27,816 nt of DNA, from positions 1 through 27,816 of the IMG/VR virus record IMGVR_UViG_3300025483_001120; one strand, written 5' to 3'. Position numbers and translations under genes: made by a program. The notes under the pieces are model-generated. The model was not told where the DNA came from. It did no database searches and saw only the letters and a program-made list of their open reading frames with translations. Position 1 is the first letter of the stretch, and every line of letters starts with the position of its first letter. Source of the DNA: a virus. This document shows positions 3,320 through 24,200 of the stretch, in pieces.

Positions 3320-3327
3320 TATTTATG
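3320..3327 (-). promoter_or_regulatory. Putative late promoter box upstream of gp8
   Basis: On the minus strand this reads CATAAATA, one mismatch from the T4 late -10 element TATAAATA recognised by gp55. It overlaps the TAA stop of the upstream 1,538-residue gene and lies about 31 bases before the gp8 ATG, which would leave room for a short leader. The spacer contains GAGGAA and then AGGA next to the ATG. A single eight-base match in AT-rich DNA is weak; position in the only gap before gp8 is the main support. Confidence 0.5.
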
Positions 3328-6300
3328 AGGTTTGTACAACCGTCTGATATTGAATACTCTTAATTCGATAAGAAGCACCCGCATTACCAACAAGTTTTTC
3401 ACCACCAAGAATGGCATACGCCTCTGCACCAGAACCAGTAGTATCACCTACTGCTGGTGTAAATGTGATAGTTGGGGATAGAACACCTGCGGTGATAGAC
3501 TGGGAATATCCATATCCACCATTAGTAATATTCAAAGAAGAAACCTGGTCAGATGCAGTTGTCATAACTGCAGTTACAGTTGCTTGAATATCTCCAATAT
3601 TTTCAATTGCGACTGTTGGGATTGCAGAATAGTTAGTACCTGCTTCCTGAACAACTATATCAACAATACTACCAGTAGAAGAGAACTCATTAAGTAAACC
3701 ATTAACACCGACATTAACATTACCAGTGTTGAATGGAATAACATCTTTCACCACCAATATTCCTGTAGTTGTGTCCCAAGAAACAACTGTTCCTCTGACT
3801 CCAGAAATATCTCCAGTAACTACTTCATTCACACCATAGTTCAAATTATTACCAGTAAGTTTATCCACAGTAATTGTAATCAAAGCAATATGTTCGATAC
3901 CCTCTGCCAATCCACCTGCAGTAGAAATAGTTGCATACTTTTGATTTGGATATGCAGTCGCGTCTAAAATACTATCACCAACGGCAAACAAAGTAGTATT
4001 TGTACCACCTTGAGTCTCTTCAATACCATAGAGAGAACTGTAGATACCACCATCAAGATTAATTTGACCAGCATAATCTGTGTTGGTATTAACCAAATCT
4101 GCGATGCCGTCGCCAGCACCGTCATTCTCATCATTATCTTCAAATTTTCTATCAGTTAAAGTATTAATGCCCGCAGCAGCAAGAGCAAAAATTTCGTCTC
4201 CTGTTGAGGTTATAACAACGTGTGGAAGAGAACCACCAACACTACTATCTGCAAGTCCTGCATCAAACTGAACAATTGCATCCTCGGTAGATGCAATACC
4301 AGCATCAATGAATGCTAGTTCGTCAATTTCAAAGACTACAAATAATTCTTTACTATTAGGATTCCAATCATAAACCTTGGCAATCTTATTATTGGCGCTT
4401 TCAACTCTTCTAAGTACTCGGTCACCAACATTGAAATTGTATGTCGATATACCAGCAATATCTTGAGTGGTATCAAGGATAACTCTTTGGTCATAGTTAA
4501 AATTGGTTCCCCTAGTAAGACCAGTGAATTTGCCTACTGACTTTCCAGTATATGTAACAATTTCATTGTTTAGGATAAAACGACCAGAACCAGGGAAAGC
4601 AGACGTAGAGTCTACAAAAATTTCAGTATCTGCAGGTCCAACATTCTTTACTAGACCAGAAAGATATTGAATAACACTATTAAATGCCTGTCTTGCTCTA
4701 GTTTTTCTTTTCAGATTTACTAGTTTTGTAAAGATGATATTAGGTGCATTTACATAACCAGAACCAGGGTCTGTAATGTTGATTGCCGAAATCTGCCCCT
4801 GATTAATTTCTGCTGTTGCCTTAGCACCAAGTCCGCCACCTCCAGTAATCAATACAAATGGTGGTTCTTGATAGAAATCACCAGCGTCGGCAATTGTAAT
4901 TGAAGAAAGTTTACCCAAAGTATCGACTTCGGCAGCACCTTGTGCTCCTTGACCACCACCACCTTCGAATACAAGAGTTGGTGAAGTTGCAAAACTTCTA
5001 CCCTCATTTTGAATGGTAAGACCTGTGATAGTTTGAACAACTGGAGATGCTGTTGCACCACTACCTTCACCACCAAGAATTCTTGCTTCAGCAGTTCCAA
5101 AATAACCATCACCATTTTTGGTCATTCTGACATAGTTGACAGTTCCGTCCGCATTTAGAATAACTTCTCCCTCTGCACCAAATGGAGATTCTGTTCCTGC
5201 TGCAGGAACAATGTCCCCTTCAAACAACGGAGCACCAAACATCTTTGGTCCGACTGCATACGGATATTCAGGAACTTCACTAGAGTTTTCCGTTAAGAAG
5301 TATGCATAGGTTCCGTTTGGATATTCTGGAGTAACAATATACGTTCCATTGAATTCATCTAAATCACCAACACTGGAATCATAGATATAATCTTGTATCA
5401 ACATGCCCATAGAATAACCGTCTTGGGTTGTTCTTATACCATGTCCAAAGTTTGCATATGAATATGTGTGTAGAGTCTGAGGTACATCGGATGGAACTTC
5501 TATTTGAATATTTCTGGTTGTTGCTGTAGTAAATCCTGAAATGTATGTATTATAGTTAACTGTAGAACCATCAAGAGTATATGTAATATTTGGGTGTGAA
5601 TACAAATAAATTAAATTGCCGATATCACCAATATCTTGAGTTGGATGCCAACCATCATCGTCATTAGATAGTAATAAAATATTACCATCATTTGAAGAAT
5701 CATCTTGATTGAAGATATATGTATTACCTCTCTTCAGATTTAAGAAGTTTGGAACACTACCATCATATTGAAATTTGCCTGCAGATACAGTGACTGTATA
5801 TGTTGTAGTAGAGGGAGTAATAATCTCAGGACGACCACCATCAATTTCTGCACCCACTTTCAATCTATATGAAGTTGATGCTCTTTCTACTACATTACCA
5901 ACTCCAAAATATCCGTATGGTCCGTAGATGGGATATCCATCAAAAGACATACCAAGAATTTTGGAATGTCCGTCTGGGTGTCTAGAGAGGTCATCATCTC
6001 CAGAACCAACGGTAATATTTCTAATACCCCAGTGGTCAAAAGAAGAACCATCAGCATTATTTTGATATAAGAATACCGTTTGGTTCTCATTTCTAGATGC
6101 AGGAGGAACTGCAATTGTTACAGTTTTAACTGTATCGTATGATGAGTCGGTAGCACTAGCAATCTCAATAGAACCATAAGATGTATTGAATGCAAAATAT
6201 ACGCGAAGTCCTTCCCCAAAATCGGGTGCTTCTCCACCATTAGTACCATTGCCTCGGATTATTTCAGCATCAAAGGTAACAACATTTCGTAAATCTAGGT

Positions 6301-7939
6301 CAAATCTTACCCATCGCTGACTCGAACTACCATTAAGTCTAAAGTGAGTACCAATAGCAAATCCGCCATTGCTTCCTGTACCACTTCCTGCACTAACAAT
6401 AGCAGCATTATTGAGATTTAAGTTATACCCACTTTGAAAGTCTGTTGGTGTGACAGTAACTCTTTCTTGGAAGAAATTTGTAATGTAGTAGTCATTTGTA
6501 GGTGCTGCAGTGTCTTGAACACTACTTAAACTAATATACCCCTCATGTCCTGCATATCCAGACATATATCTGTGATACTTACAGTAAAAGTAAATATTAT
6601 TAGTTTCATCTTCATTCATTATGAAGATGCTTCTAAATGCATTTTCATAATCAGCAGCGACTGCTGCAGAAGCGCCAGTGCTGTTATACAATAAAGTTCC
6701 GCTATTCAACTCTCCATCAGGAGTAGTACTAAACTGAATAGGGTGCCCTATACCTTGTTGATTTGATGCGTCAGACTGGTCTAAAATAATTACATAATTT
6801 TTTCTTACTTGAATATTTTCTGGTGCCAGATAATATGTGTTGGGAATGAAAGACCCAAATAATGCCGCATCAGCGCCAAAATTGATATAAAAAAGATTTA
6901 ATGAAATTGGAGAATCGCTAATAGTGAATGAGAATCCATTTGAACCAAGAACAGCATCATTTTCTACAAATGTACCACTCACATTCCTCAAGTAAACTTG
7001 GGTAATTTGATTTAAATTATTTCTAATAACTTTTACAATTTCTGCCGATGAAGTACCGCCAATTTCTACAACAGTTCTTCCTATCTCAACAGGTCCTATT
7101 GTTTCTTGTACATTAGATACATCAACCAAAAGATTCCCATATTCAACTTTCAAGTTCCAAGTGAATACTCTATGGAGACCCCAATCAAGAACACCATGCT
7201 TAGTTGCAAAGTGATTGAGTAATCTAGATGATTGATAGTAGTATGTGGTTCCATCAGTAACACCATCATAGATGTCTGAATTTTTTACATTCGATTCACT
7301 TACTGCATCAAGTTCAAATCCTACAGGGGCGGAACCAGGACTAGAACCCCACTCTGGAGTGTGTAATAGAACACCATTTGCCATGATGCCAAGAGACTTA
7401 TTCTTTTGAAAGTTTCTACCCGTTCCAAAAGGTACTTGTTTACCGCCTCTATAGATAAATGTCTGGTCGAAGTTTCTGTCTGATATTGTTCCTGCACCCT
7501 GCCTCTCTGTCAAAATATCTGCAGGTTTGGGGTCATTATCAGATCTAATCCTGAGTCTGTCTACTAAATCTCCTTCTGAGTTTACCTCAAATACTCCTGT
7601 TGTTGCAGAGTTGGGATGTGACTGCCAAATTGTATTGATATCAAAAGAATCAATAACACCTAAAGACTCTGATGTGGGAACAATTTGCAATCTAAGAGGG
7701 TCATAACCACGACCTCTTTCTAATACTCTGACGTGAATAATCTTACCAGAATCATCATCAATAATTGGATACAGCAGAGCCTCTGCTTCAGGAATTCCAC
7801 ATCCAGTAATTGTTAATCTAGGTGGGTCTGTCGAGTCGTATCCACTGCCATTATTGACAATCTCGACTGCCCTAACGCCAAAAAATTTGTCGAAAATTGG
7901 TTTAATTTCCGCACCAGATCCAGGTACTGTTCTTGCCAT
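3323..7939 (-). CDS. Multidomain virion/tail-fibre protein with cupredoxin, reelin-like and YHYH domains
   Basis: 1,538 residues, complete. Visible order: GSGY-type repeats (about 20-90); an NGV segment, IMANGVLLHTPEW (185-197), which resembles the first half of a YHYH domain; a cupredoxin-like domain (365-475) with putative copper ligands H399, C453, H456 and M459; a reelin-like jelly roll (487-645) containing NGTNGGEAPDFGEGL and DHWGIRNITVG; the YHYH core SFDGYPIYGPYGY (665-677); an inserted degenerate cupredoxin-like segment (712-845); the YHYH remainder GDLDEFNGTY and TPEYPNGTYAYF; further GSGY blocks (920-1075 and 1425-1500); and an acidic DxDxxDGxGDG loop near 1268-1281. There is no signal peptide. 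It starts 8 bases after the 407-residue gene with GAGG overlapping that gene's stop. The likely role is as a fibre, whisker or baseplate-peripheral adhesin; exact function is unknown. It has no T4 counterpart that I recognise. Confidence 0.85.
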   Translation of the reverse strand: MARTVPGSGAEIKPIFDKFFGVRAVEIVNNGSGYDSTDPPRLTITGCGIPEAEALLYPIIDDDSGKIIHVRVLERGRGYDPLRLQIVPTSESLGVIDSFDINTIWQSHPNSATTGVFEVNSEGDLVDRLRIRSDNDPKPADILTERQGAGTISDRNFDQTFIYRGGKQVPFGTGRNFQKNKSLGIMANGVLLHTPEWGSSPGSAPVGFELDAVSESNVKNSDIYDGVTDGTTYYYQSSRLLNHFATKHGVLDWGLHRVFTWNLKVEYGNLLVDVSNVQETIGPVEIGRTVVEIGGTSSAEIVKVIRNNLNQITQVYLRNVSGTFVENDAVLGSNGFSFTISDSPISLNLFYINFGADAALFGSFIPNTYYLAPENIQVRKNYVIILDQSDASNQQGIGHPIQFSTTPDGELNSGTLLYNSTGASAAVAADYENAFRSIFIMNEDETNNIYFYCKYHRYMSGYAGHEGYISLSSVQDTAAPTNDYYITNFFQERVTVTPTDFQSGYNLNLNNAAIVSAGSGTGSNGGFAIGTHFRLNGSSSQRWVRFDLDLRNVVTFDAEIIRGNGTNGGEAPDFGEGLRVYFAFNTSYGSIEIASATDSSYDTVKTVTIAVPPASRNENQTVFLYQNNADGSSFDHWGIRNITVGSGDDDLSRHPDGHSKILGMSFDGYPIYGPYGYFGVGNVVERASTSYRLKVGAEIDGGRPEIITPSTTTYTVTVSAGKFQYDGSVPNFLNLKRGNTYIFNQDDSSNDGNILLLSNDDDGWHPTQDIGDIGNLIYLYSHPNITYTLDGSTVNYNTYISGFTTATTRNIQIEVPSDVPQTLHTYSYANFGHGIRTTQDGYSMGMLIQDYIYDSSVGDLDEFNGTYIVTPEYPNGTYAYFLTENSSEVPEYPYAVGPKMFGAPLFEGDIVPAAGTESPFGAEGEVILNADGTVNYVRMTKNGDGYFGTAEARILGGEGSGATASPVVQTITGLTIQNEGRSFATSPTLVFEGGGGQGAQGAAEVDTLGKLSSITIADAGDFYQEPPFVLITGGGGLGAKATAEINQGQISAINITDPGSGYVNAPNIIFTKLVNLKRKTRARQAFNSVIQYLSGLVKNVGPADTEIFVDSTSAFPGSGRFILNNEIVTYTGKSVGKFTGLTRGTNFNYDQRVILDTTQDIAGISTYNFNVGDRVLRRVESANNKIAKVYDWNPNSKELFVVFEIDELAFIDAGIASTEDAIVQFDAGLADSSVGGSLPHVVITSTGDEIFALAAAGINTLTDRKFEDNDENDGAGDGIADLVNTNTDYAGQINLDGGIYSSLYGIEETQGGTNTTLFAVGDSILDATAYPNQKYATISTAGGLAEGIEHIALITITVDKLTGNNLNYGVNEVVTGDISGVRGTVVSWDTTTGILVVKDVIPFNTGNVNVGVNGLLNEFSSTGSIVDIVVQEAGTNYSAIPTVAIENIGDIQATVTAVMTTASDQVSSLNITNGGYGYSQSITAGVLSPTITFTPAVGDTTGSGAEAYAILGGEKLVGNAGASYRIKSIQYQTVVQTS
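4097..4138 (-). other. Acidic calcium-loop-like motif in the 1,538-residue protein
   Basis: Residues about 1268-1281 read DNDENDGAGDGIAD. The alternating aspartates with DG pairs recall thrombospondin type-3 or dockerin calcium loops. It stands alone rather than in a tandem series and lacks cysteines, so calcium binding is only a possibility. Confidence 0.3.
5405..5806 (-). other. Degenerate cupredoxin-like insert within the YHYH domain
   Basis: Residues about 712-845 of the 1,538-residue protein. The opening TYTVTVSAGKFQYDG...LKRGNTYIFNQDDSSN matches the strand pattern seen before the copper ligands in phage cupredoxin-like modules. The expected Cys is absent: the corresponding stretch reads LHTYSYANFGHGI and then GYSMGM. 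It splits the YHYH domain between YRLK and GDLDEFNG. In the giant protein these two points are only about 50 residues apart. Probably a copper-free relative. Confidence 0.5.
6005..6481 (-). other. Reelin-like jelly-roll domain (1,538-residue protein)
   Basis: Residues about 487-645. Landmarks are GSGTGSNGGFAIGTHFRL, RGNGTNGGEAPDFGEGLRV, VFLYQNNADGSS and FDHWGIRNITV. The order GxNGGExPDxGEdL, then xxxxQ, then DHWxI resembles reelin-type subrepeats. A paralogous copy lies in the giant protein at 12600-13085. Such folds often bind protein or carbohydrate surfaces. Family name is by eye only. Confidence 0.5.
6515..6847 (-). other. Cupredoxin-like domain with putative type-1 copper ligands (1,538-residue protein)
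   Basis: Residues about 365-475. The pattern is H399 in GIGHPIQFST, then C453, H456 and M459 in YFYCKYHRYMSG, i.e. Cys-x2-His-x2-Met, the spacing found in amicyanin-type blue copper proteins. The preceding strand NYVIILDQSDASN fits the cupredoxin core. I checked the ligand codons directly (TGT at 6583-6581, CAC at 6574-6572, ATG at 6565-6563). Copper binding itself is inferred. Confidence 0.6.
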
Positions 7940-7945
7940 TTATAT

Positions 7946-7949
7946 CCTC
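7946..7949 (-). promoter_or_regulatory. Shine-Dalgarno of the 1,538-residue gene, overlapping the upstream stop
   Basis: The minus strand reads TTGAGGATATAAATG. GAGG stands six bases before the ATG and shares bases with the TGA stop of the 407-residue gene. This supports the chosen start at 7939 and close translational linkage of the two genes. No separate promoter is needed here. Confidence 0.7.
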
Positions 7950-9171
7950 AACTTACGACGATAATTGTTCCGTTCATAGCAGCGTGTACTGTACACTGAT
8001 AATAAAGAGTTGTTGGAGCATCCATAGGAACAGTCCAATAAAGAACTGATGTAGAGTTTCCAGATTGACCTGTTGTATATGGATTACCACTCAAACCAGT
8101 TGTGGACTGAATTCTAAATGGGTGATTTGATCCATTTGAACTATTATCAAATGCATAAGTAAATCCTCTATGCACATAGATATCAGGGTCGTTTGCTGTA
8201 GTTGGGAATCCAGGACCACTAAAGGTATAATCATTCGCACCATTCGAACCAAGTTCCCACCAAGTAATAGGACTTGCTGTTCTTACCCAGTTACTGCCAT
8301 TCCAGAAGAGACTATCGCCTTGAGTAAGACCTGTAGTATCCGAATCCGTCAGACTGGAAAAACTGGTATTGATACTACCAGAAAAGTCGATAGTAACTGT
8401 ATCTCCAGCAATAGACGTATCAATATTAGTACCACCAGTAATAGTTAATGTATCCGTTTGCGAATCTGCTGTTGTTGTACCAGTATCAGCATTAATGGTT
8501 TGGAATAAATTAAGAGAGGAGATGCCTGCCTGGTCATCTCCAGGAACCCAATTGGTTCCATTCCACTTCAAAATTTGATTAGTTGTAGGGGCGGCAGTAG
8601 TAACATCAACGTTGGATAGAGACCCAATACCAGAATACTGTGTAAGTAATGAAACTCTAGTATCACCAACACCACCAGCAGTGATGTTCATGTTGACATA
8701 GGGATTGTCATCTCCATCAACAGTAAAGAAATAACCAGGATATGAAGCAGCAGTAGGAGCATTACCCACCGCTGTATACTCATTCTTATATTTTACTGTT
8801 GTAGGAAAATCAATAGTTCCATCACTTCCCTCAAAAGTAGAAGTAACACTACCATGAGTAATTCGTACATCTCCTGCTCCGTTAGGACCAAGAATAACAT
8901 TTGGATATGTTACTGAAGATGTAATAATATTATTATTTACATCCAATGCCGTCGTCAGTTGTCCAAAATCTGCCGAGGTAAAGTTTGTACCATTATATTT
9001 GAGCACATGCCCACTAGCAGCATTAGCCGTAGTTAAATTTAAAGTGCTTCCATTTCCAAGAGTTTGATAAATTTCATCAAAATTATCATTAACCTTATCA
9101 CCTCCATCACGGAGGGTATCCCCCGTGTTGTCATTTGCCGAAGCACCTAACCCAATAGTTTGTTTAGCCAT
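7948..9171 (-). CDS. Tail-fibre-like virion protein with C-terminal cupredoxin-like domain
   Basis: 407 residues, complete. The N-terminus, IGLGASANDNTGDTLRDGGD then KVNDNFDEIYQTLG (6-39), is the ANDgTGDxLR...KxNdNFxEiY motif common at the N-terminus of phage fibre and virion proteins. The middle carries short repeats of the type LKYNGTNF (57-64), LKWNGTNWVP (201-210) and LFWNGSNWV (288-296). The C-terminal domain (about 300-407) is cupredoxin-like, with H350 in GSNHPFRIQ and C393, H396 and M399 in YYQCTVHAAMNGT, close to the amicyanin copper loop. There is no signal peptide or transmembrane segment. It follows the giant gene after a 38-base gap that holds a late promoter box. Probably a trimeric fibre or decoration subunit; the function is not established. 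Confidence 0.83.
   Translation of the reverse strand: MAKQTIGLGASANDNTGDTLRDGGDKVNDNFDEIYQTLGNGSTLNLTTANAASGHVLKYNGTNFTSADFGQLTTALDVNNNIITSSVTYPNVILGPNGAGDVRITHGSVTSTFEGSDGTIDFPTTVKYKNEYTAVGNAPTAASYPGYFFTVDGDDNPYVNMNITAGGVGDTRVSLLTQYSGIGSLSNVDVTTAAPTTNQILKWNGTNWVPGDDQAGISSLNLFQTINADTGTTTADSQTDTLTITGGTNIDTSIAGDTVTIDFSGSINTSFSSLTDSDTTGLTQGDSLFWNGSNWVRTASPITWWELGSNGANDYTFSGPGFPTTANDPDIYVHRGFTYAFDNSSNGSNHPFRIQSTTGLSGNPYTTGQSGNSTSVLYWTVPMDAPTTLYYQCTVHAAMNGTIIVVS
7951..8274 (-). other. Cupredoxin-like domain with putative type-1 copper site (407-residue protein)
   Basis: Residues about 300-407. Ligand candidates H350, C393, H396 and M399 are all present; I checked their codons (CAC at 8124-8122, TGT at 7995-7993, CAC at 7986-7984, ATG at 7977-7975). 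The loop CTVHAAMNG has the same Cys-x2-His-x2-Met spacing as amicyanin (CTPHPFM). The domain ends the protein and would be exposed if the N-terminus anchors to the virion. Metal occupancy is unproven. Confidence 0.62.
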
Positions 9172-9209: not shown

Positions 9210-12200
9210 TTATTGATAGTCAACGTACTCCTCGCCGTAGTCTGCGAGGTTTGGTGCAGTCCAATCGTCAGGAACTTCACTCTCAACAACAATCGCAGTT
9301 TCCTTATATGCAGAACCCACGTTGCCGATTTCAACAACATTAATACCGATAATCGCTCTAATTTGTGCATCGAAACCACTAATAGAATCAACACGAACAA
9401 CAGGTCGAGAGGTATATCCAGAACCTGGTGCAGTAATACTCACTTTTTCAATAAATCCAGATTTAAGAATTGGAGTTGCCTTTGCGTTTTGTCCAAAGAC
9501 AGAACCAAGATAATCAAATGTGATGAGTGAGTTGGAAGATTCGATAACTGCAACTTCACGGTCTTCAGTCTCACCCTGAATATCGATGAAATCACCAGGT
9601 TCAATAGGAGGAACAACTTCAGAAGCGTCAACGTCTGCTTCCGAACCAACATAAGAGAATGCAGCAAAACTAGAACCAACACGAGGAATTTCGGAGAAGA
9701 TGATTCTAGAACCAACAATCTCGAAACCAACACCAGGTTCTTGAATAACACCATTGAGCGAGACAATGATATTGTTCTCGGGTCGAATGACACTAGACTG
9801 AACACCTTCTGTAAGTGTCAGTGAATAGAACACATCATTACGCTTAAGGTTGAATGACTGACGTAATGAGTCAAACTCGAATGAGATATCATCCAACTGC
9901 CTCAGTTTACCAATATAGAATCCAGTAAATGTGGAACCTGCATCAGGTGCTTCTGCAAACTGAATTTTATTAGAGAATGCGTTGTAAGCATTACCAGCGC
10001 CAGGAGGTTGTAAAATGCCATTAATGAAAATGAGCATATGACCTGCGGGGTCTGGCAGATATGTTGTGCCATTACTGATAGAAAGGTCAAATATAGTTTG
10101 AGTGCCATCAAATCCACGGAAGGATCTCTTCACGCGGGCGCGTGAGATAACTTTATCGATAATAACAGATTTGTAATCTTTTCCAGCAATAACCGAATCA
10201 TTCTCATTCCAGATGCCAATAACATCTCTGAGATAGAGTCGCTTGTTAACACCAACTGAGGTGATATTACCAATCAATCCATATGCCTGACCAGTTTGAA
10301 CAAGTTTAGTAGCAATTGTGCCAGTGGCAATTGTGTTAGCACCTCCACCTGCTGGACCAAAGTCACCAACATTGTCCGTAATAGAGAAGTCTCCATCGAT
10401 AGGTGAAACATACAGATAGTTATTAACTGTATCGACTCCACTGATGATTGCTTTCTTAGAGGTATCTCTGCCGCCACCAGAGTTCAACAAATAGATGAAA
10501 TGACCCAATATGAACCCAGTTGCATTTGCGACTCCCAGGCGAGTATAACCGCCAGAGATAATTTTATCTCCAATCTGTACATCAAGACCATTATATTTCT
10601 GAACTTCAATATAAAGTTCAGTATTACTCGAATAAACAACAGCGGTTTTCTCGAATGTACCCGTGAGAGTTGAAGTATCAACAGTTAACTTACCGCCAGT
10701 GTTATCAAGGACAGCGGTCTCATTTCTAATGAATGATGTGGGAGTTGCAGTTGTAGAAGAAGTAAATCCAAGGAACGGAATAGAAGGTGTAAACGTACCT
10801 TTTAATCTAATAATATGCAATCTGCTTTCAAGAGCACTTAGTGTTGCAGTTGTAGTATTTGCTGCACCAATAATACCATCAGCGATTGCCCAAGTTCCAC
10901 CAGTTATTTCAACATCGAGATACTTATAGTTTTCATCTTCATGGAATCCGTAAACAACACCAGTTACACTAGAATCTCCATCCTTTTGAACTATTTCACC
11001 CATAGTGAAAGGTCCATCAGTAATATCACCATCAATACGGAATCTATTATAAACCTTAGCAATTTTTGCCTCATTCATAAACGAAGTTTCCAGTTCAGCA
11101 TTAGTATCGCTATACTCTCCATAGAAGTAATCTGATGTAGAAAGACCACCACCAACACCAGTTGGTATATATGTAATTCCAAATTCCTTAGTAGGAACAC
11201 TGATTCCACTGTTTACAGTGATATCTGCATAGTAAGTGGAATTATCAAGTTGTTTTTTATAGAAATCTACATTTCTTCTAACAACTGTAAGGAATTCATC
11301 TGTCGAATAACCCGCTCTCCAAGTAGCGTTATCAAAGGCATATGAACCATTCGCTGTGGGAGATGCAAGACTTCCATTAAGAGCACTCTCAACATAATCT
11401 TCAAACAGATTAAGAGCAAAGTTCTTAATGTTGTATTCACTGTTGGAGAAGAATCTTTCTCCACCAACGGAGGTATATGCGTCAAATGCACCTTTATTAA
11501 ACTTAGCACCCCAGACATAAATTCCAGAACTGCCGTCACCTGGATAGTTAATAGCACTAGCATTCTTGATGTTAAGTCTTGTGGTAAGACTACTAAATCC
11601 AAAGGAGAATGTTAGGGTTGCAAAAACTCTATACCAACCATTACCAAAGGGAACGACTCCCGTCGTATAACTTACCAAACCAGCTTCAGGTTGGAAGATA
11701 GACCCTGTAGAACCGTTGGTCAGGTCAACATCAAAGAAGAGTGACTGCGGACCTGCTTGACCGTCATCAAGAATAGCAGAGAATCTAATGTCTGTGTATT
11801 CTGCAGATTTGACAAATAGTGACGTTGTGAACGTTTGAGTGGAATCTTCTGCAATAGAACCTGTATCGAACGTTTCATTAGTGGTGTCAAATTTAACTGA
11901 ACCACTATCAAACGTTTCAAAAGCATTTAGAGTATATACTCTGTCAATATCATGATTAACTGTACCACTAGCATCAGCAGTTATTTTTTCTGCTGTCAAG
12001 GTATTGTCTGGTGAAAGAATTGCGTTATTGGTAAAAGTAGCACTAGCGGTTGTCCAATTAATTGCAAACGCTTCAGGATTAGTCCAGAAGTTTGTGCTAG
12101 AGAACTCAGCAGCAATAGGTGATTGAATCAATCTTGCATCATTAAAGGTCAATACATTGCCAACATTTGTGTAATAATCAAATGTAGATCCAACTCCGCT

Positions 12201-15200
12201 ACTAGGAATAGTAGAAGAAACTCCACTTGTTCCACCAGTTAATGTATCACCATCAGCAAACAATGTTCCTGTAATCACACCAATGTAAACTGCATTACCA
12301 ATATCCTCAAGAACAGTAGCACTTCCACCGCCACTAGATGTGATAGTCTCACCATTATTAAATCTGGTCGTATCAAGAACAACGTTGATATTACTAATAG
12401 TCATTGCCGTTGTAGGATTACCGCCAGAAATAGTTACCGTTGGTGGAGTTGATGGGTCATAACCAGTACCAGGATTGGTGATTGATACATTAGAAACTTC
12501 ACGGAGAGTGATGAAGTTTGCAGTTGCTGCAGTTGTAGTTACAGACTGTTCTGCACCATCTGCAAAAGCAATAGTGACAGTTCCTTGGAACTCTTTTGCA
12601 GTGTCAATTACAGAAACTCTCTTCAAACCATAATGGTCATCATTAGCACCGCTATCTTGTGCAGATTGGCGAACAATAAATGCAGTGTCAGGACCTTTCG
12701 CTCCTGTAGGTAATGCTACTGTAATAGCAGTCCAATCAGTAAAGTTTGTATAATTAGAACCACCACCAGCAGCACCACCGTAAATAAGTGTGCTAATCAA
12801 TACTTCAGTGTTGCTTCCTTGAACCTTATAGTAAAGAGCAAGGTCTTCACCAGCATCAGGTGATTCACCACCATTTGAACCATTACCTGCTGTAACATAA
12901 ACACGAACATTATCCATGTCAGTGGTATTACGACGGGTAGTGATTGCATATCTATCTCCAGATGCAGCACCAAACAGAATATATTTACCGACACCATCAA
13001 ATCCACCAGTGGTTCCAGTGCCAGTACCCGCATCTTGAATTTCGGAACCAGGACCAAATCCACTGCTAGTTTGCCACTCAATTGCAGTGTCTGCATCCCA
13101 AACAGAACCATCGTAAGTGACAGCAGAAACAGCACCACCAGAGATAGTAGCAGTTGCGCCATCGTCGCCAATATTAGCACCTGTTAAGGTTACATCGGGA
13201 CGAACTGTATATCCCGAACCACCACTGGCAACATTGATTGCAGAAATAGGACCTGCTGCTTCAAGAGTTGCAACAGCAGTTGCTGTTACGCCAGATGCAG
13301 GAGCAGTAAATGCGATTGTAGGTACAGACTGATAATCAGCTCCTGCAGTGAATTGCAGTTCACTAACTACACCTTCTCTTTGCAATGTAATTCTTCTAGA
13401 AGTAGTTTTATTAGAAGATGAAGTATCAGTGATGATAATATCGTGAGAGAGATTATCAACTAAACCATCAATGAAGGAATCATATTGCCAAGAATTAGCA
13501 CCAAACTGATTATTAATCGTGTTTGTGATTTCAGTTCTGTAGTAGTTTTTGTTGAACAGAAGAATCTGCGAGGCATATCTACCAGATAGACCAGCAGGAG
13601 ACAGAATTCTAATTGCAATGTCAATCAACTCACCATATTTTGCCATGACTGCTTGAACATCCGTTACGCTAAGAGCATCGCGATATGCAGTCTCGGTTGC
13701 ATATACTGCAGCATATTGACTTCCAGTAGTAACTGCACCTGTAGTGTATAGCAGATTCTGAATTGCACTAATACCCAAATCTCTCAGTTGTTCAATAGCA
13801 AAGATTGTTGCAGAAAGTTGCTCTTCAATGTGGTCCAATTGTAGATTAGCAGTCAGATAAAGTTCAATTGCTCTGATTGTACTGTTATTGCCGCCAGTTT
13901 GAAGGTCAGAAATAGCACTAGTAAGAATCAACTTCAAGTCTCTCTTACACTTCTCAAGACCAGCAGAACCATTAGGATAGTTAAATGCTCTATACGAAAC
14001 ATTATTCAGAACATATGTAAACTCTGCGTCCAACCTACCAGTTGCTTCAGATGCAATATAGTCACGATTAAAGTGAATTCTATCTGCAGCGATATTAAAG
14101 TCCTCACCTGTAGGTGCAATAGTATCATTCAGAAGAGTTATCAAGTTATCAATAGCAGATTGAACGTCTGCACACTGACCAGCATCATTAGTAATACCCC
14201 AATCACCAATGATGAGTTGATCGGTATTATCAGTAGTTAAATCGCCATTGATTGCCTGTTTTGCATAGAAACCAAGTCTTTCATGAGCGTATACTGACTG
14301 CCAAACTTGCAATCTAATATGCTGCAGTTCGTTATTGACTCCAACATAGAATCTAGAAGTAGATGCAACATTTTTATTACCACCAAGTTCAATATCTGCA
14401 GCAATATCATCTAAGATGAGACCAAGGTCTTGCTTACATCTTTCAGTACCATCAGTGCTTGTGCCATTAGCATTTCTAGGCATACTAGTAGCGAGGTCAG
14501 GATATCTTGTAAGCATATCAGATGCTGCTTTATCAACAATTGCTTGCCTATTAGCACGAATCAGAGTACTAGCATCTTTGAATCTATATTCAGAAGCAGC
14601 ACCGATTTTATTAGAGTACAGAATATCATTAGTATTATCAACAGAATCTGCAGTCAATGCGACTTTATAGAATCCATCAACGGTAGCACCTTTAAATTCG
14701 ACAGCAGGAGATACCTTTGTAACAGCACCGAGATGGTCAACAGGGGTAGAGAGATTTGCATTCGTGAGCGTATCAATCAGAATATCAAGGAGGTTGTCAG
14801 AGGTAGATGCAACATCAGCGCAATCGCCAGTAGTATAATTCAGCAACTTAACTGCGTTAGTACTAGAAGAGACGAAGGTATGAGCATATTGCCTATCAGT
14901 AGGAGATGCACCCACGTTTACTGTAATTGTAGTAGCAGTAGTAGCAGTAATTGCAAGAACTTTATTATAGAAAGGATCGTCTGTTCTTGGATATGCGTGC
15001 TGTGTAATGTTATTATCAGAGGAACAAGTAAATACAATACTTCCAGGAGAGATGCCGACTTGACTGCTGGTGGTCAAACTATGTGTACCAATAGTCAGAA
15101 CCATAACTCCAGTTGCAGAATCATAAGTTGCTGCAGTAGGAGTAAACTGACTGTATACAGTATTATTAGAGTCTGTAATTGTCGTGTCAGTAAACTGAGT

Positions 15201-18200
15201 AAGACCATGAGAACCAGATACAGTCCAAAGAACATTATTAATGATATATGGAATCATATCACCAACTTTATTATATGCCCAGATAGTTTCTGCAATTTCA
15301 GTTTCAATGTGATTTAATGTGATTGGTGAAACTGTTCTATCGACATATAATGCTGCTGCATCCCAAATGTGGTTGTTTGAACCATTACGAACATCTTCAA
15401 TAATTGCTTCAACAATATCTACAACATCATCTTCACAGTTAACATTACCGCCAGGAATTGTTAAACTAGGATACTGCTGAGTTAACAGATAGACTGTTTC
15501 CTTTGCAATGAAGTTTTTATTTTTCTCAAGAAGATTTGCAGCATCATAATATCTCTGAGAATTACCAGTAAATCCAGTAACTACCGCAGTATTACTATTT
15601 GCTCGGGTTGTTGCAAGAATTGCATCATTATTGAAGAACTCACCTTTGGTGAAATCTTGAGCACCAGACCAATCATCGGTGTAGGTTTGTGTATCAGTAC
15701 CATCAAAGTGCAGCAACAATTTAGCATTAATGTCTCCTTGGAACATACCGCTACGAACGGTAAATGCTGCCGTATATCTTGCAAGATTAGAAACTCTAAA
15801 GTCATCAATATGTCCAAGGAATCCATTAGCATCACTAACATCACTACCAATCTTAATAGTCTTAGTAGTCCCTAAATTGGTACTATTTGTAACACTACCA
15901 ACTTCAGTACCATCAACAAAGAGTTTCAAAGATGTGCCACTTCTGCTAACTGCAATATGATACCAGGTATCAATTACAATATTGTTACTAGAAGTGATAA
16001 TATCAGAACCACCAATGTTTACACGAACTTGACCCGTAGAAGCAACATAAAGTCTAATGGCACCACTATCACCACTATTATCTCTCATGTCTAGGATATG
16101 ATGATCTCCAGAAAGTGCGCTAGCACGAACCCAAACATCTAGGGTAAATGCTGCAGTACCAAATCCAAAATCATCAGAGGTGGCGATACTAACACCATCA
16201 CCAGTTGCAGGAACTGACAGGGAGGAAGACCCAAATTTCTTTTGAGCAGTATCAAGTTCTGCATTACCAATAAATGTTACCGCATGGTGATCGCCACCAT
16301 AGGACTTGGTTCTACCAATTTTTCCAAGATAAATGGTCTTTGCTGCTTGATTGAAACCAATAATCTCCGCTTTGGTGTCTCTTGTGCGAAGCACCTGACC
16401 TAGAGAGAAGAATCCCCCACCAACAGGATTAGTAAGACTCAATTTACGGATAGAAAGATCCTCAGATGTCGTGAAGTCGCCACTTTCGTTGCCAAATTCA
16501 ATCTTATAATTTCTGATAAATTCATCATCTTGGAATGTTCCTACAGAATTGTTATATGGAATTATGTAATTGTTGACAATTTCATTTTCAGGGAATTTGA
16601 CATTGAAATCTGTATTATTATCTGTGAAATCAACTACGGCAATTTGTGACTGAGAAATATCATCTAGGACAATATTTGGATATGTAATAGATGACAATCT
16701 ACTGAACAGAAGTCCAAAGAATGAAGAACCTTCAGAGATTTCAACTTCAGGAATAACCTCGTTAGTTGCTGCATCTCTATAAGGAGTTGTAGAAGTAATT
16801 CTAGCAACAACACGAGATTTAGCACCAACGATAATGTCGTCGAGAATGACATCATACAATCCAGGTTTGGACTGATATGTACCAACAGTTTTACTAAGGA
16901 TTAAATCATTAGTAACTGTAATGTTAGTTCCATATAAAGGAGTGAGTTCTTGAATTCCAGAAACTACCGTTCCTAGCTGCCCTCTAACTACAGTAAGTGT
17001 AGTAGAGTCTGTATTTTGAACAATATTAGACACCTGTACAATTTCACTACCAATCTGATAGTTTTGACCAACAGTAAATACACCCTCTACTCTAGATGGT
17101 GCATTAATAGTTGCATTATATCCAATAATCTCAAATCCTGTGGTAGAAGGACCAACTCCATAACGGAGTTTTGCAAGAGGAGTCTCAGAACCTTTCTGAA
17201 GGTTAATATCTTCAACAACAGCAGTGTCACCTTGCAAATCTGTTACACTTTCACCGAATACAAACAGATTGTTGCTAGGAACTACTTGAGAACTTTCAAA
17301 TACAGCAGAGAATCCTGTAGTATTTCCAAGAACAAGTTCATTTGTACTAAACGCTGTACCGATTGTAAAGAAACCTTCGATAAGTTCTTTCGATACATTA
17401 TTGATAGTAACACCAGTAACTTTAGTAACAGTAAACTTAGCACCCGACCCAGTACCACTAAGAACATTGCCAATATTAGGAACAATGCCACTAGTGCTAA
17501 TGAATGTTGCTTCTGTAATTGCAATCGGGTCAATTTGTACACTTACATACTTAACACTTGCAGGAGGAGAAGGTGGTTCAGAGAAGACAATAGAGTCACT
17601 TTGAATTGTAAATGAAACCTCAGGAGTTTGAACAACACCATTAAGGATAACCATCAACTGATTGGCATTAGCAATAACAGCATCACCATTATTAACAGTA
17701 ATTGAGAATTGGGTTTTAACACCATCAAACTGACTAGAAATATCATCTAATCTTTGTACAACAGATGTCAGAATGTTCTCCGAAGATGTTAATCTCTTTT
17801 GACGGAACTGAATAACTGTATTATCAAATTCAGAATATACAGGTTCAACCAAAGTGAAGTTCTGAATATTAGGAACGATTGCTTCATTAGCAAGTTCAAC
17901 TGACTTAGTTAATTCAAAATCGGTTTCTTTATTAGGAATAGTTGCATAGTCACTAATAGAAAGTTCACCAAAGATTTTGAATGATGCAGGGTGTACATTT
18001 CTGACAACAATGTCTTTCCACTCACTGATAGACACAGAAGACTTAACAGCATAGGAGAAGTCTTGATAATAATAAGAGTCTTGAATTTTTTGAATAATTT
18101 CCGAAGGTTTACCAACATCATCAATGAACTGACCTGTTGTCTTAGTGATAGAACCAACTTCAAGAACACCTCTAGCAATTTTCAACTTGGAAATAACACC

Positions 18201-21200
18201 AGAGGACTTGGAGATAACACCTGTGATTGTTTGACCTTCCGTAAATGTTCCAGTGTAATTGACAAGTTTGACAATTCTAGGACCAACTTGCCAACCAGAG
18301 TTTGTAGAAACATAACCCTGAGCAGTTGCATTTTCTAGAGTATCACCTTGATATACAAGTTCGCCCTCAAGGAAAGTTGAAGTAATTACGTTAGCAACTG
18401 CAGTACCACCAAAAGATGTAGTCAATACCTGTTGACGACCAGTACCAGTATTAGTAAACGTTAGAGCATCACCAAGAGTTGCATTCGCTGAAGTAATTGC
18501 AATTTTTAGTTGGTCATCTTCAAGAGAGTTTGCAGCACCAGAAATGGCATAATATGTATTACTTCCATTCAGTCTACCAATAGCACCAGCAGCGATTGGG
18601 AATTCTGCACCTTCTCCAGTATCTACAACGTTTAGTGTAATCTCAGCACCATTTTGAATTCCGTGAGGGAATGCAAACTGAAGAATACCAAGGTCTAAGT
18701 TCACAACATAGTTGAACGAAGATTTGAGTGTTACGACAGGTGTAGAAGAATACCCTGAACCAGGATCCTTTACCTCGATAGCAAACAATCTACCATTCTT
18801 GATAGTTGCTGCAGCAATAGCACCAGAACCGCCTCCTCCAGTGACAACAACCGTAGGTGCTTGTGTATAACCAGAACCAGGGTCGGTAACTGTAATGCTA
18901 TCCAAAATGCTAGTAGAAGTTAACTGAGCATTGATTGGGAAAGAGATTTCAGGACGCAGTGTGTAGTCATGAGAATAATCAAAACCGAAGTTATTATTTT
19001 TCAAGTTCTTAATCTTACCAATCTCTTCACCCAGAGTGAAAATAGAGGCACCAGAACCGAAAGATGGAATAACAACTACTAATTCTGCACCAGAACCAGT
19101 GAGTCCAGGTCCAAGGATACCGTTGATTGATTCAATATCAATTGTTGCTGTTGTATAACCTTTACCAGGAGAAGTAACAACAACTTTTTGAATTTGACCA
19201 GGGATATTACCTCCTTCTTCATCTGCACCATCAGAAACAGTAATGGAAACTAATCCACCTTCACCATCTCCAGAAATAGGCACACTATTATAAACGCCTA
19301 CTGCATATTCAGTACCAGGGTCATTGATTTGTACTCTTTCAATATTTCTAGTGGATTGAATACTTGAGACAATAGGAAGTTTTGTATAGAATCCACCAGG
19401 GTTAACAATACGAATATTAGAAATAGAACCAACTGCCTTCTTAGAACTTGTACTATAACTAGAATTGGCAATCGTTGCAGGACCTTCTGGTTGATTTATC
19501 AGTTCAAACTGGAAGATATCATCACCCCTAGTGATTGAACCACCAGATGTTGAGAATACTGTAAATGTGCCCACATAAGGAGAGAAAGTAACATCTAAGT
19601 AACTTTCAGGAATGACAGGAGAATCAGCACCCGTTCTAGATGGGTCAAAGTAATAAGAGATGTTCGTAATTACATCCCGAGTAACTTTCAGTTTTACTGT
19701 GGGTGTCGCAACACCCTGTCCAGTCACACCAGGTGTACCAATACGCTGAATAGAGTTGAATGAATATTCAAGTTTATACAGAGGGTCTTTAGAGAATGAA
19801 AGGTTGCCACCAAGCATAGATGAATGACTGAGGTCAAACAAATACTGGTGTCCATAATACATCTTAAGTGTAGGAGACTTAACAAAGACCTTTACTGAAC
19901 TAGCACTTGTCGCAGGTAATGTTAAGGCAGTTTGTGGCAGTTTATATGTAAATTCAACAGGACTAATGATTCGTTCTACAGGGAAAGAACCATCATACTC
20001 ATCATAAACAGTTCCACTAACTTCTTCAGAAGGATTACCGTCAATATACATTTGAGTATTAACACTCAAATAATGCAATGAACCACTAATTGCATATGCA
20101 GTGTCTGTATTAGAAACAGAAGTTACTTGAAGAATTTTTGTGAGATTAGCAATCAAACTGATTTTAAGAACACCAGTTAGATTAGTAATCTGAGCAGTAG
20201 AGTATGCTGCATTGAAACTAATATCACCTGAAGTAATATTTACAACAGAACCAACCGAGTAACTGGATGAACCACTAACCTCAACAATCTTAATGCTGTA
20301 ATCATCATCACTATATGGTTTAAATACACCATATTCGTCTAAATTGTTTGTACCACCAACATCTTCAGGTGCATTGTAATTTGCAAGATCGATATCAAAT
20401 GTTCCAGGTGTTGTATTAGTTACGTCTGCAAATGTTTGAGCGATTTCATTATTTGCACTATCAGTTGGAACAGGTCCGATAATGCCATAAGTGCTCTGCT
20501 CACTAAACTGTTCTGTACTAAGTTGATATTGATTTAAATCATTTGACCATGGATTACTGTTGATTGCAAGATATACTTTTTTAGTATTATAATCTACTCT
20601 AGTGATATATCCACTATTAACAAAAGAAGAACCATTTTTGAGAACTAATTTAGAACCAACCGTAAATATAAAATTCTGATTGATTGTGAGTTCTTGAACA
20701 TTATCAATTTTCAGAAGATTGAAAGTTTCAAAGTAATAACGATTTTTAACATTTGCCGTTACTTTTAACTTCTGAGAACCAGGAGAAGGAACTGTAGCAG
20801 TTCTTGTACTCCAGGTATCCTTAGTATATGTCAGAGTTTCTGTTCCCTCAGACATTGTAGTGGTCGCTTCGTTGAAATCGAGAGACTGCAATCCAACGTC
20901 CGCTAAAGTATATCCAACAGAATTCAATGTTAATGAATTACCTGTAACAGGTGTTACTGCAGTCCTAGTAAATCCATAATTTGTAGTGGTGTTTGCATTG
21001 TAACTACCAAGTCTGACTGCATCAGCATTCTTATCAACCTTTATACCAAATCCAAGATAATCGATATAATCATATCTAGCATGTTGCTGAGTGAACCATG
21101 CAGTATCAACAAATGTATGTGTAAGTCCTACTGCAGCAGCAACTGGTAGTACTGCAGGAGAACCAAAGTCACTAGGTGCAGTTACAGTAACTGCTCTATT

Positions 21201-24200
21201 ACGAATTCTGAGAGAATCGACATAGAATTGACCTTGATTATCTTCAATAAATCCACCAGAACTAGGGAATCCAGGGATATTGCCAATATGAATATCTTTA
21301 GACGCTAAATTAGTATCCGAAACATTGCCACTAATTTGTTCAATAGAGTTTACATATACTTTAAAATTGTTTCCAGATTTTCTAAGAGAAATTAGTTGCC
21401 AGGTATCATTCGCAAACAATCCAGTATTTGTTCCTGTTCCTGCAGATGATGCAGAAATAGCAGTTGAGTTATTAGCAACAACCAGTTCTACTCTACCATC
21501 ACTGGCAGTTCCATCAGTATTATAATATAACCATAGACCACCAGTGGTATCTGATGCGTCACCAATAGCAATAAGAGTTTGCTGGTCTGCACTCAACGTT
21601 TCTGCTTTACTATTAGCAGCATCTTTATAAATGAGGAAGTCGATAGTAAAGTCGGATGCAAGAGCAGTACCTAAAGAAGTTCCAGCAATTTTTGCTCCAC
21701 TATTTTCAAATGTTGTTGACTGACCTGTTTGGAATCCATAAATTTTCAGGATATTATCAGCATTTTCAATAGAACCGCTAAGACCAAGTGTAGTTAAAGT
21801 GTGATGACCAGTTTCATCAGTAAGATTTCCATCAAACTTAAAAATTGCCTCATTTCTATTCCAAGAAGTTTGTCCAAAGACATATGCGTCACCAGAGGTG
21901 TCTGTGCTTAAAGAATTGGCAGTAATTCCCTCAATAGTATTTTCAGTAAAGTCGGTAGTTGTATGATTTACAATATTACCCTTATAATCAATTTTGACCG
22001 TATTAATAGTTTTCTTAGAGGTTGTATTGTCAACTTTAGTATACGCAACATTCAACTGATTGAAAATATCAAGAGTAGTAGAAGGAACAAGATTGATATC
22101 TCTACTAACAGCATAGTTATAGTTCCAGACAGAAACGCCTTCGGAATCAAACTTGCCCACCCAGAACCTATCTCTAGTTGCATCGTCACTCTTCAACTGT
22201 AAAGTCGAAGATACATAAATTTCATTAAATTCGTCGATTGTGAAACTTGTATCTAAGAATGAATACGCATTATTAGTAATTTCCTTAATCCAATCAGTAG
22301 TAATAGAAGTAGTGCTAATAGTTGCCTTACCAATAGCAAAATTGATATCTCCAGCATTTTGAGACGTAGAGGTCTCCATCAAGAAATACAAGTTATTATT
22401 GTTATCATAAAGCAAATCAGTTACTTTCTCATTACCATTACTGGAAGCAATTTTTCTTTTTACAGTAAATGTTCCTGTAGAATCAAGAACTGCAATGAAA
22501 CCATCATAAGGTGCGGGAGAATTTGTATTTGTATATCCTGCAATAATTACTCTATTATTATCAGAACCAATAATCTTGCTGATATTATCGGAACGAGTTC
22601 CACCAGAAATACCAGCATATGCTTTCTGGAACGTTAATGTTGCACTAAGTCCATCATTTGCTTGAGTATACTTTGCAATAATAATATCTGGATTGTAAGA
22701 ATCAAGAATAGTACCATTTGGTTTGTTGATACCAGCTACCCATATAGTATCTCCATCAACATAAAGTTTTTGGAACTCTGCATAGTTTAATCCTGTTGTG
22801 AGTTCTAAGGTCTTCTCCCACTCTTTAACACCCGCTGCAGAAAGTTTAGCAACAAATGCAACGGTATTTCCAGATGCATCTAAGGTTTGACCACAAATGT
22901 AAGTTTCTTTTGCAGCATTGACAAAACTATCATTAATTTTTACATATTCTTGATTATCAACTTTGGAAACATAATAATCAGACTTTTTGAATACCTGTGG
23001 ATGTGAAAGAATAACTCTAGGATTCTTTGTATATCCATTACCAGAATTTAAAATATTAACTCGTTTGATTGCACCAACAGAGTCTACAACCGCCTCAAGT
23101 TCAGCATCTACACCATCACCGTCAATAACAATTTGTGGAGGAATTTCCTCACTATATCCACTACCAGTTTGAGCAATTACAATCTCTTCTACACCCTTAA
23201 ATTGTCTTACTGAATATTGCTTATTAGTAGTTTCAATATTTTCACTATAATCTACAAATACACTATCACCAACTGTCAGATTATGAGGTTGAGCAGTTTG
23301 TATTTTGCCGTAATTACTACCATTGCGATATTCATAATTGTAAGAACTAATGGTTTCACCTTTAATTCGTGATACTCGTGCAGATGCACCAGAACCACCA
23401 GTTCCAGAATTGTCAAAGATTAATTTATCATCAACCTGATAACTTACACCAGAATTTTCAACTACAAAATCTGTAATAGATGCATTCTCAAATCTACTAA
23501 TAGTTTCAACTTCGATATCAACTTTTGACTCAGTTTTTACTTTAGGGAAGTAATCGAAGATTTGAAGTGGAGGTTCTTCTAAAATTTGATCTGGGTCATC
23601 AATTTCATCTTGACTGATAATACCATCTTTATTTTCATCTTCAACATCAAATAATAGTAATGTTCCATCTTCTAAAGTCAATGAGTTTGTAGATGCATTA
23701 GGAATTCTTTCAACATCAATATCAACATTCTCATAAGGATCGCGATAACGAACAACCCCAGTTGGAATATTTTGCTGAGTTGCAGACTCATTTAAATTCC
23801 AAGAATCAACAACTGAGTTGAAATCAGAACCAAGAATATATGGGAATACAGAGTTACCAAACTCAGTATTATCAATGGTTACAAAATAACAATATCTACC
23901 ATTAGGATATTCTGGTGTTTTACAAAAACGACCATTATACTGGTCTAAATCACCAAGACCAAAGACATATTCATAGTCTTCTACATATGTGCCTGCAGCA
24001 TCATCAGTCAATGCAGGACCTTCAACTCTACTTGGATTAGGATTTGTAGTAGCATCAAGAATCAAATTAGTCTTTAATCTGTATGAAGTAGCAACTCTAC
24101 TGAGTGTAGAACTTTGATTAGTTGGATCACTATATCCATATGGTCCATAGATGGGATTACCATCAAATGCCCAACCGATAATTGGTGAGTGAGTTAATTG

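What the first reader, a model, noticed from the sequence alone, without database searches (positions are those of the whole stretch)
7951..8274. Complete type-1 copper ligand set in a fibre-like protein
H350, C393, H396 and M399 with Cys-x2-His-x2-Met spacing reproduce the amicyanin-type blue copper loop at the C-terminus of a protein whose N-terminus looks like a virion-anchoring motif. A copper site at a fibre tip could stabilise the fold, bind a surface ligand or have redox activity; none of these is established.
Basis: partly seen in the sequence, partly recalled or inferred. Interest (0 to 1): 0.7.

Follow-up and report, generated by a model that had tools for sequence, protein, structure and literature searches.

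The report
Blue-copper-like domain on cyanophage baseplate protein
A baseplate protein of an ocean cyanobacterial virus ends in a domain that looks like a small blue copper protein, complete with the four copper-holding amino acids, and the same module recurs across tail and structural proteins of many marine phages, which suggests that virions may carry bound copper, although nobody has yet measured it.

Summary
ORF 7948-9171 (-), 407 aa, is the cyanomyovirus gp9 orthologue (PHROG 677; T4_gp9_10_N at its N-terminus). Its C-terminal ~105 residues contain H350, C393 (the only Cys), H396 and M399 with amicyanin-type C-x2-H-x2-M spacing. They are invariant in 62 distinct gp9 orthologues. In 27 diverse domains from myo-, podo- and other phages, the only invariant residues are these four plus one Pro and one Tyr. 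AlphaFold2 folds the domain confidently (pLDDT 94); the top 50 PDB fold matches are all cupredoxins; a family profile hits blue-copper proteins. Across 109 non-redundant relatives, 103 keep all four ligands and five lose all four: all-or-none behaviour of a metal site. The neighbouring 1538-aa ORF carries a second intact copy (6539-6886) and a third that has lost every ligand. So this is a genuine cupredoxin-type domain, part of a large, largely unannotated module family in marine phage virion proteins, with relatives in marine Bacteroidetes surface proteins. Copper occupancy, site geometry and function remain untested. Best guess: a metal-dependent structural or attachment module on the baseplate. 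'Fibre tip' is not shown; gp9 in T4 is the socket for the long tail fibres.

The parts
7948..9171 (-). gp9 orthologue, 407 aa (baseplate wedge / tail-fibre connector)
   Evidence: PHROG 677 E 1.9e-186 over residues 1-406; 325 phage records, mostly Synechococcus and Prochlorococcus phages, many annotated as gp9 / baseplate wedge tail fiber connector
8860..9165 (-). N-terminal baseplate-attachment domain (T4_gp9_10_N, residues 3-104)
   Evidence: Pfam PF07880 E 4.4e-10, 40.3 bits against cut-off 25; phmmer to T4 gp10 and gp9 structures
7951..8262 (-). C-terminal cupredoxin-like domain (residues 304-407)
   Evidence: AlphaFold2 pLDDT 94.1, pTM 0.86; Foldseek top 50 PDB hits all cupredoxins; profile hits blue-copper proteins
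8122..8124 (-). H350 codon, first predicted ligand
   Evidence: invariant
7993..7995 (-). C393 codon, predicted Cys ligand (only Cys of the protein)
   Evidence: invariant
7984..7986 (-). H396 codon, second predicted His ligand
   Evidence: invariant
7975..7977 (-). M399 codon, predicted axial Met ligand
   Evidence: invariant
3323..7939 (-). adjacent 1538-aa virion protein (PHROG 708, baseplate wedge subunit) carrying two further domains of the family
   Evidence: domains found with the gp9-domain profile
6539..6886 (-). second intact cupredoxin-like domain in the adjacent ORF (ligands H399, C453, H456, M459 of that ORF)
   Evidence: profile-profile match to the gp9 domain 99.3%, E 1e-20
5465..5809 (-). 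third, 'dead' cupredoxin-like domain in the adjacent ORF, all four ligands replaced
5279..5488 (-). YHYH domain of the adjacent ORF
   Evidence: Pfam PF14240 E 3.6e-16

Best explanation
The C-terminal ~105 residues of gp9 are a true cupredoxin domain with an intact type-1 (amicyanin-loop) mononuclear metal site (shown at the level of sequence and predicted fold). It is a mobile module that marine tailed phages attach to baseplate and tail-fibre proteins; this window has two intact copies in neighbouring genes plus one that has lost its metal site. Most likely working (inferred): the protein is made without metal in the host cytoplasm, and the Cys-His-His-Met site fills with copper at lysis or in seawater. 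The metal then locks the ligand loop at one end of the domain, giving a metal-dependent, stable protein-binding surface on the baseplate, for docking to a neighbouring fibre or to the host surface, rather than acting as an electron carrier. With gp9 at 18 copies per T4 baseplate (own knowledge), a virion could hold of the order of 18 or more copper ions.
For: Ligands present and invariant in 62 distinct gp9 sequences. Only H, P, Y, C, H, M invariant among 27 diverse domains from Kyanoviridae, the podovirus P-GSP1, S-TIM5, a Pelagibacter phage and an Actinomycetia phage (taxa). All-or-none: of 109 relatives non-redundant at 70% identity, 103 have HCHM, 5 have none of the four, one lacks only the first His and is probably an alignment slip. 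Sets not selected through ligand patterns also keep the site: 81 of 81 gp9 domains and 73 of 73 domains of the neighbouring ORF. Fold: pLDDT 94.1; top 50 PDB structural matches are rusticyanin, amicyanin, plastocyanin, pseudoazurin, nitrite reductase, AcoP and multicopper oxidases. Profile searches of the PDB hit blue-copper proteins, with Cys, His and Met in register with their ligands; against plastocyanin the first His is in register too. Module on virion proteins: gp9 N-terminus; other carriers match tail-fibre and structural PHROGs and carry lectin, Mtd_N, C1q, Ig and subtilase domains. The ligand-free third domain keeps family resemblance, so the family can persist without metal and the metal is presumably kept elsewhere for a purpose.
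Against: No measurement of metal, colour or redox activity exists, and ligand geometry could not be read because no coordinates were returned. TM-scores to solved cupredoxins are moderate (0.4-0.6, rmsd about 5 A). The window domain alone does not reach any Pfam or NCBIfam copper-protein cut-off. The residue after the first His is Pro, where plastocyanin and amicyanin have Asn. Phage proteins are assembled in a cytoplasm with almost no free copper, so loading must happen late or not at all. The docking or adhesion role is inferred only from the company the module keeps.
Confidence: 0.68

Rival explanations
1. Redox-active blue copper site: the domain accepts or donates electrons at the host surface, for example as a trigger or as protection against superoxide.
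For: Ligand set and loop length are those of electron-transfer cupredoxins such as amicyanin. The ligands are conserved although the family tolerates their loss, which suggests more than a structural role.
Against: No redox partner, no enzyme domain and no second copper centre in gp9. A baseplate protein outside the cell has no obvious electron donor.
Confidence: 0.12
2. Copper decoy ('Trojan horse'): the virion displays copper so that host metal-uptake receptors bind it, as proposed for iron in T4 gp37 and marine phages.
For: Iron bound by HxH motifs in phage fibres and the Trojan Horse hypothesis are described in PMC11705849. The module recurs on host-contact proteins.
Against: A type-1 site buries its metal and holds it tightly, which is poor for display or hand-over. 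Copper is toxic to picocyanobacteria (own knowledge) and no copper receptor is implicated.
Confidence: 0.06
3. Purely structural metal site, perhaps filled by zinc or another ion in vivo, that only stabilises the domain.
For: Cytoplasmic assembly makes zinc more available than copper (own knowledge). Cupredoxins can take other metals (own knowledge).
Against: A Met ligand is poorly suited to zinc. The ligand-free third domain shows that the family does not need the metal for persistence.
Confidence: 0.09
4. Vestigial cupredoxin: an adhesin built on an old copper fold whose site no longer binds metal.
For: Other copies in the same protein set have lost all ligands, so the fold is used without metal.
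Against: Strict retention of all four ligands at 25-50% overall identity, lost only as a unit, is not expected of a vestigial site.
Confidence: 0.05

Closest known systems
Amicyanin (type-1 blue copper protein)
   Same: C-x2-H-x2-M loop of the same length; profile match E 5e-5; Foldseek hits E 4e-4
   Different: Amicyanin is a soluble periplasmic electron carrier; here it is a C-terminal module on a virion protein, with Pro instead of Asn after the first His
Rusticyanin
   Same: Best structural match (Foldseek E 7.5e-5); one family member matches NCBIfam rusticyanin at E 7e-6; rusticyanin too lacks the usual Asn after the first His (it has Ser86)
   Different: Longer N-terminal extension, periplasmic electron carrier, different loop length (own knowledge)
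Plastocyanin, including cyanophage petE
   Same: Cupredoxin fold; all four ligands in register with the family profile
   Different: Plastocyanin has C-x2-H-x4-M; the virion domain has C-x2-H-x2-M. petE is a separate cyanophage gene for photosynthetic electron transfer (PMC3037559)
Bacteriophage T4 gp9 (long tail fibre socket) and gp10
   Same: Homologous N-terminal domain (Pfam PF07880; phmmer to gp10 and gp9 chains)
   Different: No sequence match of the C-terminal half to T4 gp9 was found, and T4 gp9 is not known as a copper protein
T4 gp37 HxH iron sites and the Trojan Horse (Ferrojan) hypothesis
   Same: Metal ions built into a phage host-contact apparatus (PMC11705849)
   Different: Octahedral iron between paired His of a trimeric needle, against a predicted single-chain Cys/His/His/Met copper site in a globular domain
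Surface lipoproteins and secreted proteins of marine Bacteroidetes with the same domain
   Same: Same HPF...YYxCxxHxxM domain, mostly at C-termini
   Different: Lipobox-bearing or secreted cellular proteins rather than virion parts

Membership tests
Cupredoxin fold | Greek-key beta-sandwich matching solved cupredoxins | tested here: met
   AlphaFold2 pLDDT 94.1; top 50 PDB matches all cupredoxins, probability 0.98-1.00, but TM-scores only 0.4-0.6
Type-1 (blue) copper proteins | His-Cys-His-Met ligand set, the last three in one loop | tested here: met
   register with plastocyanin and amicyanin in profile alignments
Type-1 (blue) copper proteins | Ligand side chains within bonding distance of one metal | not testable with these tools
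   Structure prediction returns no coordinates
Type-1 (blue) copper proteins | Copper bound, intense ~600 nm S(Cys)-Cu band | not testable with these tools
   needs recombinant protein or virions
Amicyanin | C-x2-H-x2-M loop | tested here: met
   C393, H396, M399
Amicyanin | Reaches the amicyanin equivalog model cut-off (TIGR02657, 110 bits) | tested here: not met
   13.8 bits for the window domain; it is amicyanin-like, not an amicyanin
Pfam Copper-bind (PF00127) | Score above gathering threshold | tested here: inconclusive
   Window protein gives no hit; 11 of 27 family members match weakly; phage carrier L196 passes with 34.2 bits against 21.2
Classic plastocyanin/azurin/amicyanin second sphere | Asn directly after the first His ligand | tested here: not met
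   Pro at that position in all 27 domains of A1; not defining for the superfamily, rusticyanin has Ser (own knowledge)
T4 gp9 orthologue | gp9/10 N-terminal domain and baseplate gene neighbourhood | tested here: met
   PF07880 above cut-off, and gp8 (PF09215) two genes downstream; PHROG 677; same gene order in syn9
T4 gp9 orthologue | Socket for long tail fibres, trimeric | not testable with these tools
   full-length model is poor outside the cupredoxin domain (mean pLDDT 66)

The most novel reading that the evidence does not exclude
Virions of abundant marine cyanophages carry tens of type-1 copper centres on their baseplates that are functionally required, either as a copper-dependent docking surface or as a redox-sensitive trigger of infection, making them a copper counterpart of the iron found in T4 tail fibres.
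Probability: 0.3. Interest if true: 0.85.

Novelty: new variant of a known kind. Interest (0 to 1): 0.64.

Why it matters
Cupredoxins are textbook electron carriers; finding an intact, strictly conserved copper-ligand set as a mobile module on baseplate and fibre proteins of some of the most abundant ocean viruses is unexpected. No paper in the searched open library links phage tails or cyanophage virions to cupredoxins (open-access papers only). It gives an identity to a domain found in 366 phage records that are labelled only by position (baseplate, tail) or as hypothetical, and it makes a direct experiment possible: are the virions copper proteins, and does infection depend on it? It also bears on trace-metal budgets, where phages are so far discussed as iron ligands.

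Tried and rejected
Chance motif: rejected. H334 as the first ligand: rejected, variable. Origin from phage petE: disfavoured by loop length (own knowledge of plastocyanin and alignment); not tested with a tree. Profile of the neighbouring domain alone (A2) against the PDB gave only spurious antibody hits, so its identity rests on profile-profile comparison with A1 and on its ligands. Alignment A1 was too divergent for the search for related loci; a closer subset, A3, was used. Full-length gp9 model: confident only for the cupredoxin domain, so no trimer or shaft architecture is claimed. Direct mass-spectrometric detection of this gp9 in virions was sought in PMC10665884, PMC3037559 and PMC6224464; they show that tail and baseplate proteins of related phages are in virions, but I found no entry that I could tie to this protein. 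Caveat on counts: the later scans used patterns that include ligand residues, and alignment A4 was filtered for HCHM, so its invariance is by construction; the unbiased counts are those of the gp9 scan and of the neighbouring ORF.

Full report
Identity of the protein. The window is a 27.8-kb record of an uncultured virus. The ORF at 7948-9171 (-) matches PHROG 677, 'baseplate wedge tail fiber protein connector', over its whole length (E 1.9e-186), and its first hundred residues match Pfam T4_gp9_10_N (E 4.4e-10, above cut-off). 325 phage records, mostly Synechococcus and Prochlorococcus phages, hold a homologue, and the gene order gp9 / 1.4-kaa structural protein / gp8 is the same in syn9.

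The observation. C393 is the only cysteine. The motif is improbable by composition alone (about 1e-4), but conservation is the real test. In 62 distinct gp9 sequences found by a scan whose patterns did not include the ligand loop, all four are invariant while H334 is not. A wider alignment of 27 domains from different genes and phages (25-78% identity to the window) has exactly six invariant columns: the four ligands, the Pro after the first His and a Tyr two before the Cys.

Fold. AlphaFold2, fed with 101 rows, gives pLDDT 94.1 and pTM 0.86, a mostly beta domain with one short helix. Foldseek against the PDB returns only cupredoxins in its top 50: rusticyanin, three-domain nitrite reductase, amicyanin, plastocyanin, pseudoazurin, AcoP, a Nitrosopumilus cupredoxin and multicopper oxidases; TM-scores are 0.4-0.6. 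Family profiles searched against PDB sequences find blue-copper proteins with Cys, His and Met in register, and with plastocyanin the first His too. Coordinates are not returned by the tools, so the distance between ligands was not measured.

Behaviour as a unit. Over all relatives collected, 555 of 562 complete domains have H, C, H and M together. At 70% non-redundancy it is 103 of 109, and of the six exceptions five have lost all four residues and one looks like an alignment slip. The adjacent 1538-aa ORF shows both states: its first domain has all four ligands in 73 of 73 related sequences although it was never used as a query, and a later domain in the same protein has lost them in 56 of 57 distinct sequences, with Cys replaced by Ser, Ala, Gly or Thr. 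A site that is kept whole or lost whole is what a metal site should look like. That the ligand-free copies persist also shows that the module does not need metal to be retained, so metal is probably kept for function in the intact copies. The two intact copies of this window fall in separate, well-supported groups of the domain tree, so the duplication is old.

Where else it occurs. tblastn with the domain finds 366 phage records, including the T7-like podovirus P-GSP1, S-TIM5, a Pelagibacter phage and an Actinomycetia phage. Carriers match tail-fibre, baseplate and structural PHROGs and combine the module with LamG, Mtd_N, C1q, Ig and subtilase domains. This is the usual company of host-contact and virion-surface parts. 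Cellular relatives are mostly marine Bacteroidetes lipoproteins and surface proteins, again with the domain mostly at the C-terminus. BFVD adds cyanophage fibres and beta-sandwich proteins of giant viruses.

Interpretation. Shown by sequence and prediction: cupredoxin fold, complete and conserved type-1 ligand set, module on baseplate and fibre proteins. Inferred: the site binds copper, late (at lysis or in seawater), and the metal organises a loop at one end of the domain that docks to a partner. Whether the partner is a phage fibre, the host surface or another subunit is open. A redox role is possible, but no partner is evident.

Relation to known things. It works like an amicyanin-type cupredoxin as far as ligands and fold go, but it is not an amicyanin: its score is far below that family's cut-off and it lacks the Asn after the first His. 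It is not petE, which is a separate cyanophage gene with a longer plastocyanin loop. Metal in phage fibres is known for iron (T4 gp37, discussed in PMC11705849); copper or cupredoxins in virions I did not find described in the searched open-access literature, which does not cover most subscription papers or preprints.

Noticed in passing
window 13521-15323 (-), inside the 6136-aa ORF 9210-27620: A stretch matches Pfam Phycobilisome (PF00502) slightly above its cut-off (24.1 against 22.2 bits; 34 bits over the half protein), next to a repeated motif (ERCKQDLGLILDDI, EKCKRDLKLILTSAI, NCEDDVVDIVEAI) that recalls the phycobilin-bearing Cys region. Could be helical convergence or a real phycobiliprotein-like fold in a virion protein.
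   Followed up: partly
window 5465-5809 (-): A decayed cupredoxin domain in the 1538-aa ORF with all four ligand positions replaced, conserved as such across relatives.
   Followed up: yes
window 5279-5488 (-) and the N-terminal half of ORF 9210-27620: YHYH domains (PF14240) in two adjacent large virion proteins; role unknown, possibly another metal-related module given its His pattern.
   Followed up: no
window 9210-27620 (-): A single 6136-aa ORF, among the largest phage proteins, with many GSGY/GGxG repeats, a LamG domain and a YHYH domain.
   Followed up: no
L196:250-3315: Phage protein combining a subtilase with several cupredoxin domains; it passes the Pfam Copper-bind cut-off.
   Followed up: no
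L043:9856-10221 and L081:3791-4192: Extra intact cupredoxin domains inside the large virion protein of some relatives, at or near the place of the decayed copy.
   Followed up: partly
L258 and L266 (contigs labelled Euryarchaeota MAG): The carriers resemble cyanophage giant virion proteins (shared stretches with the window's 6136-aa ORF), so these contigs are probably misbinned phage DNA.
   Followed up: no
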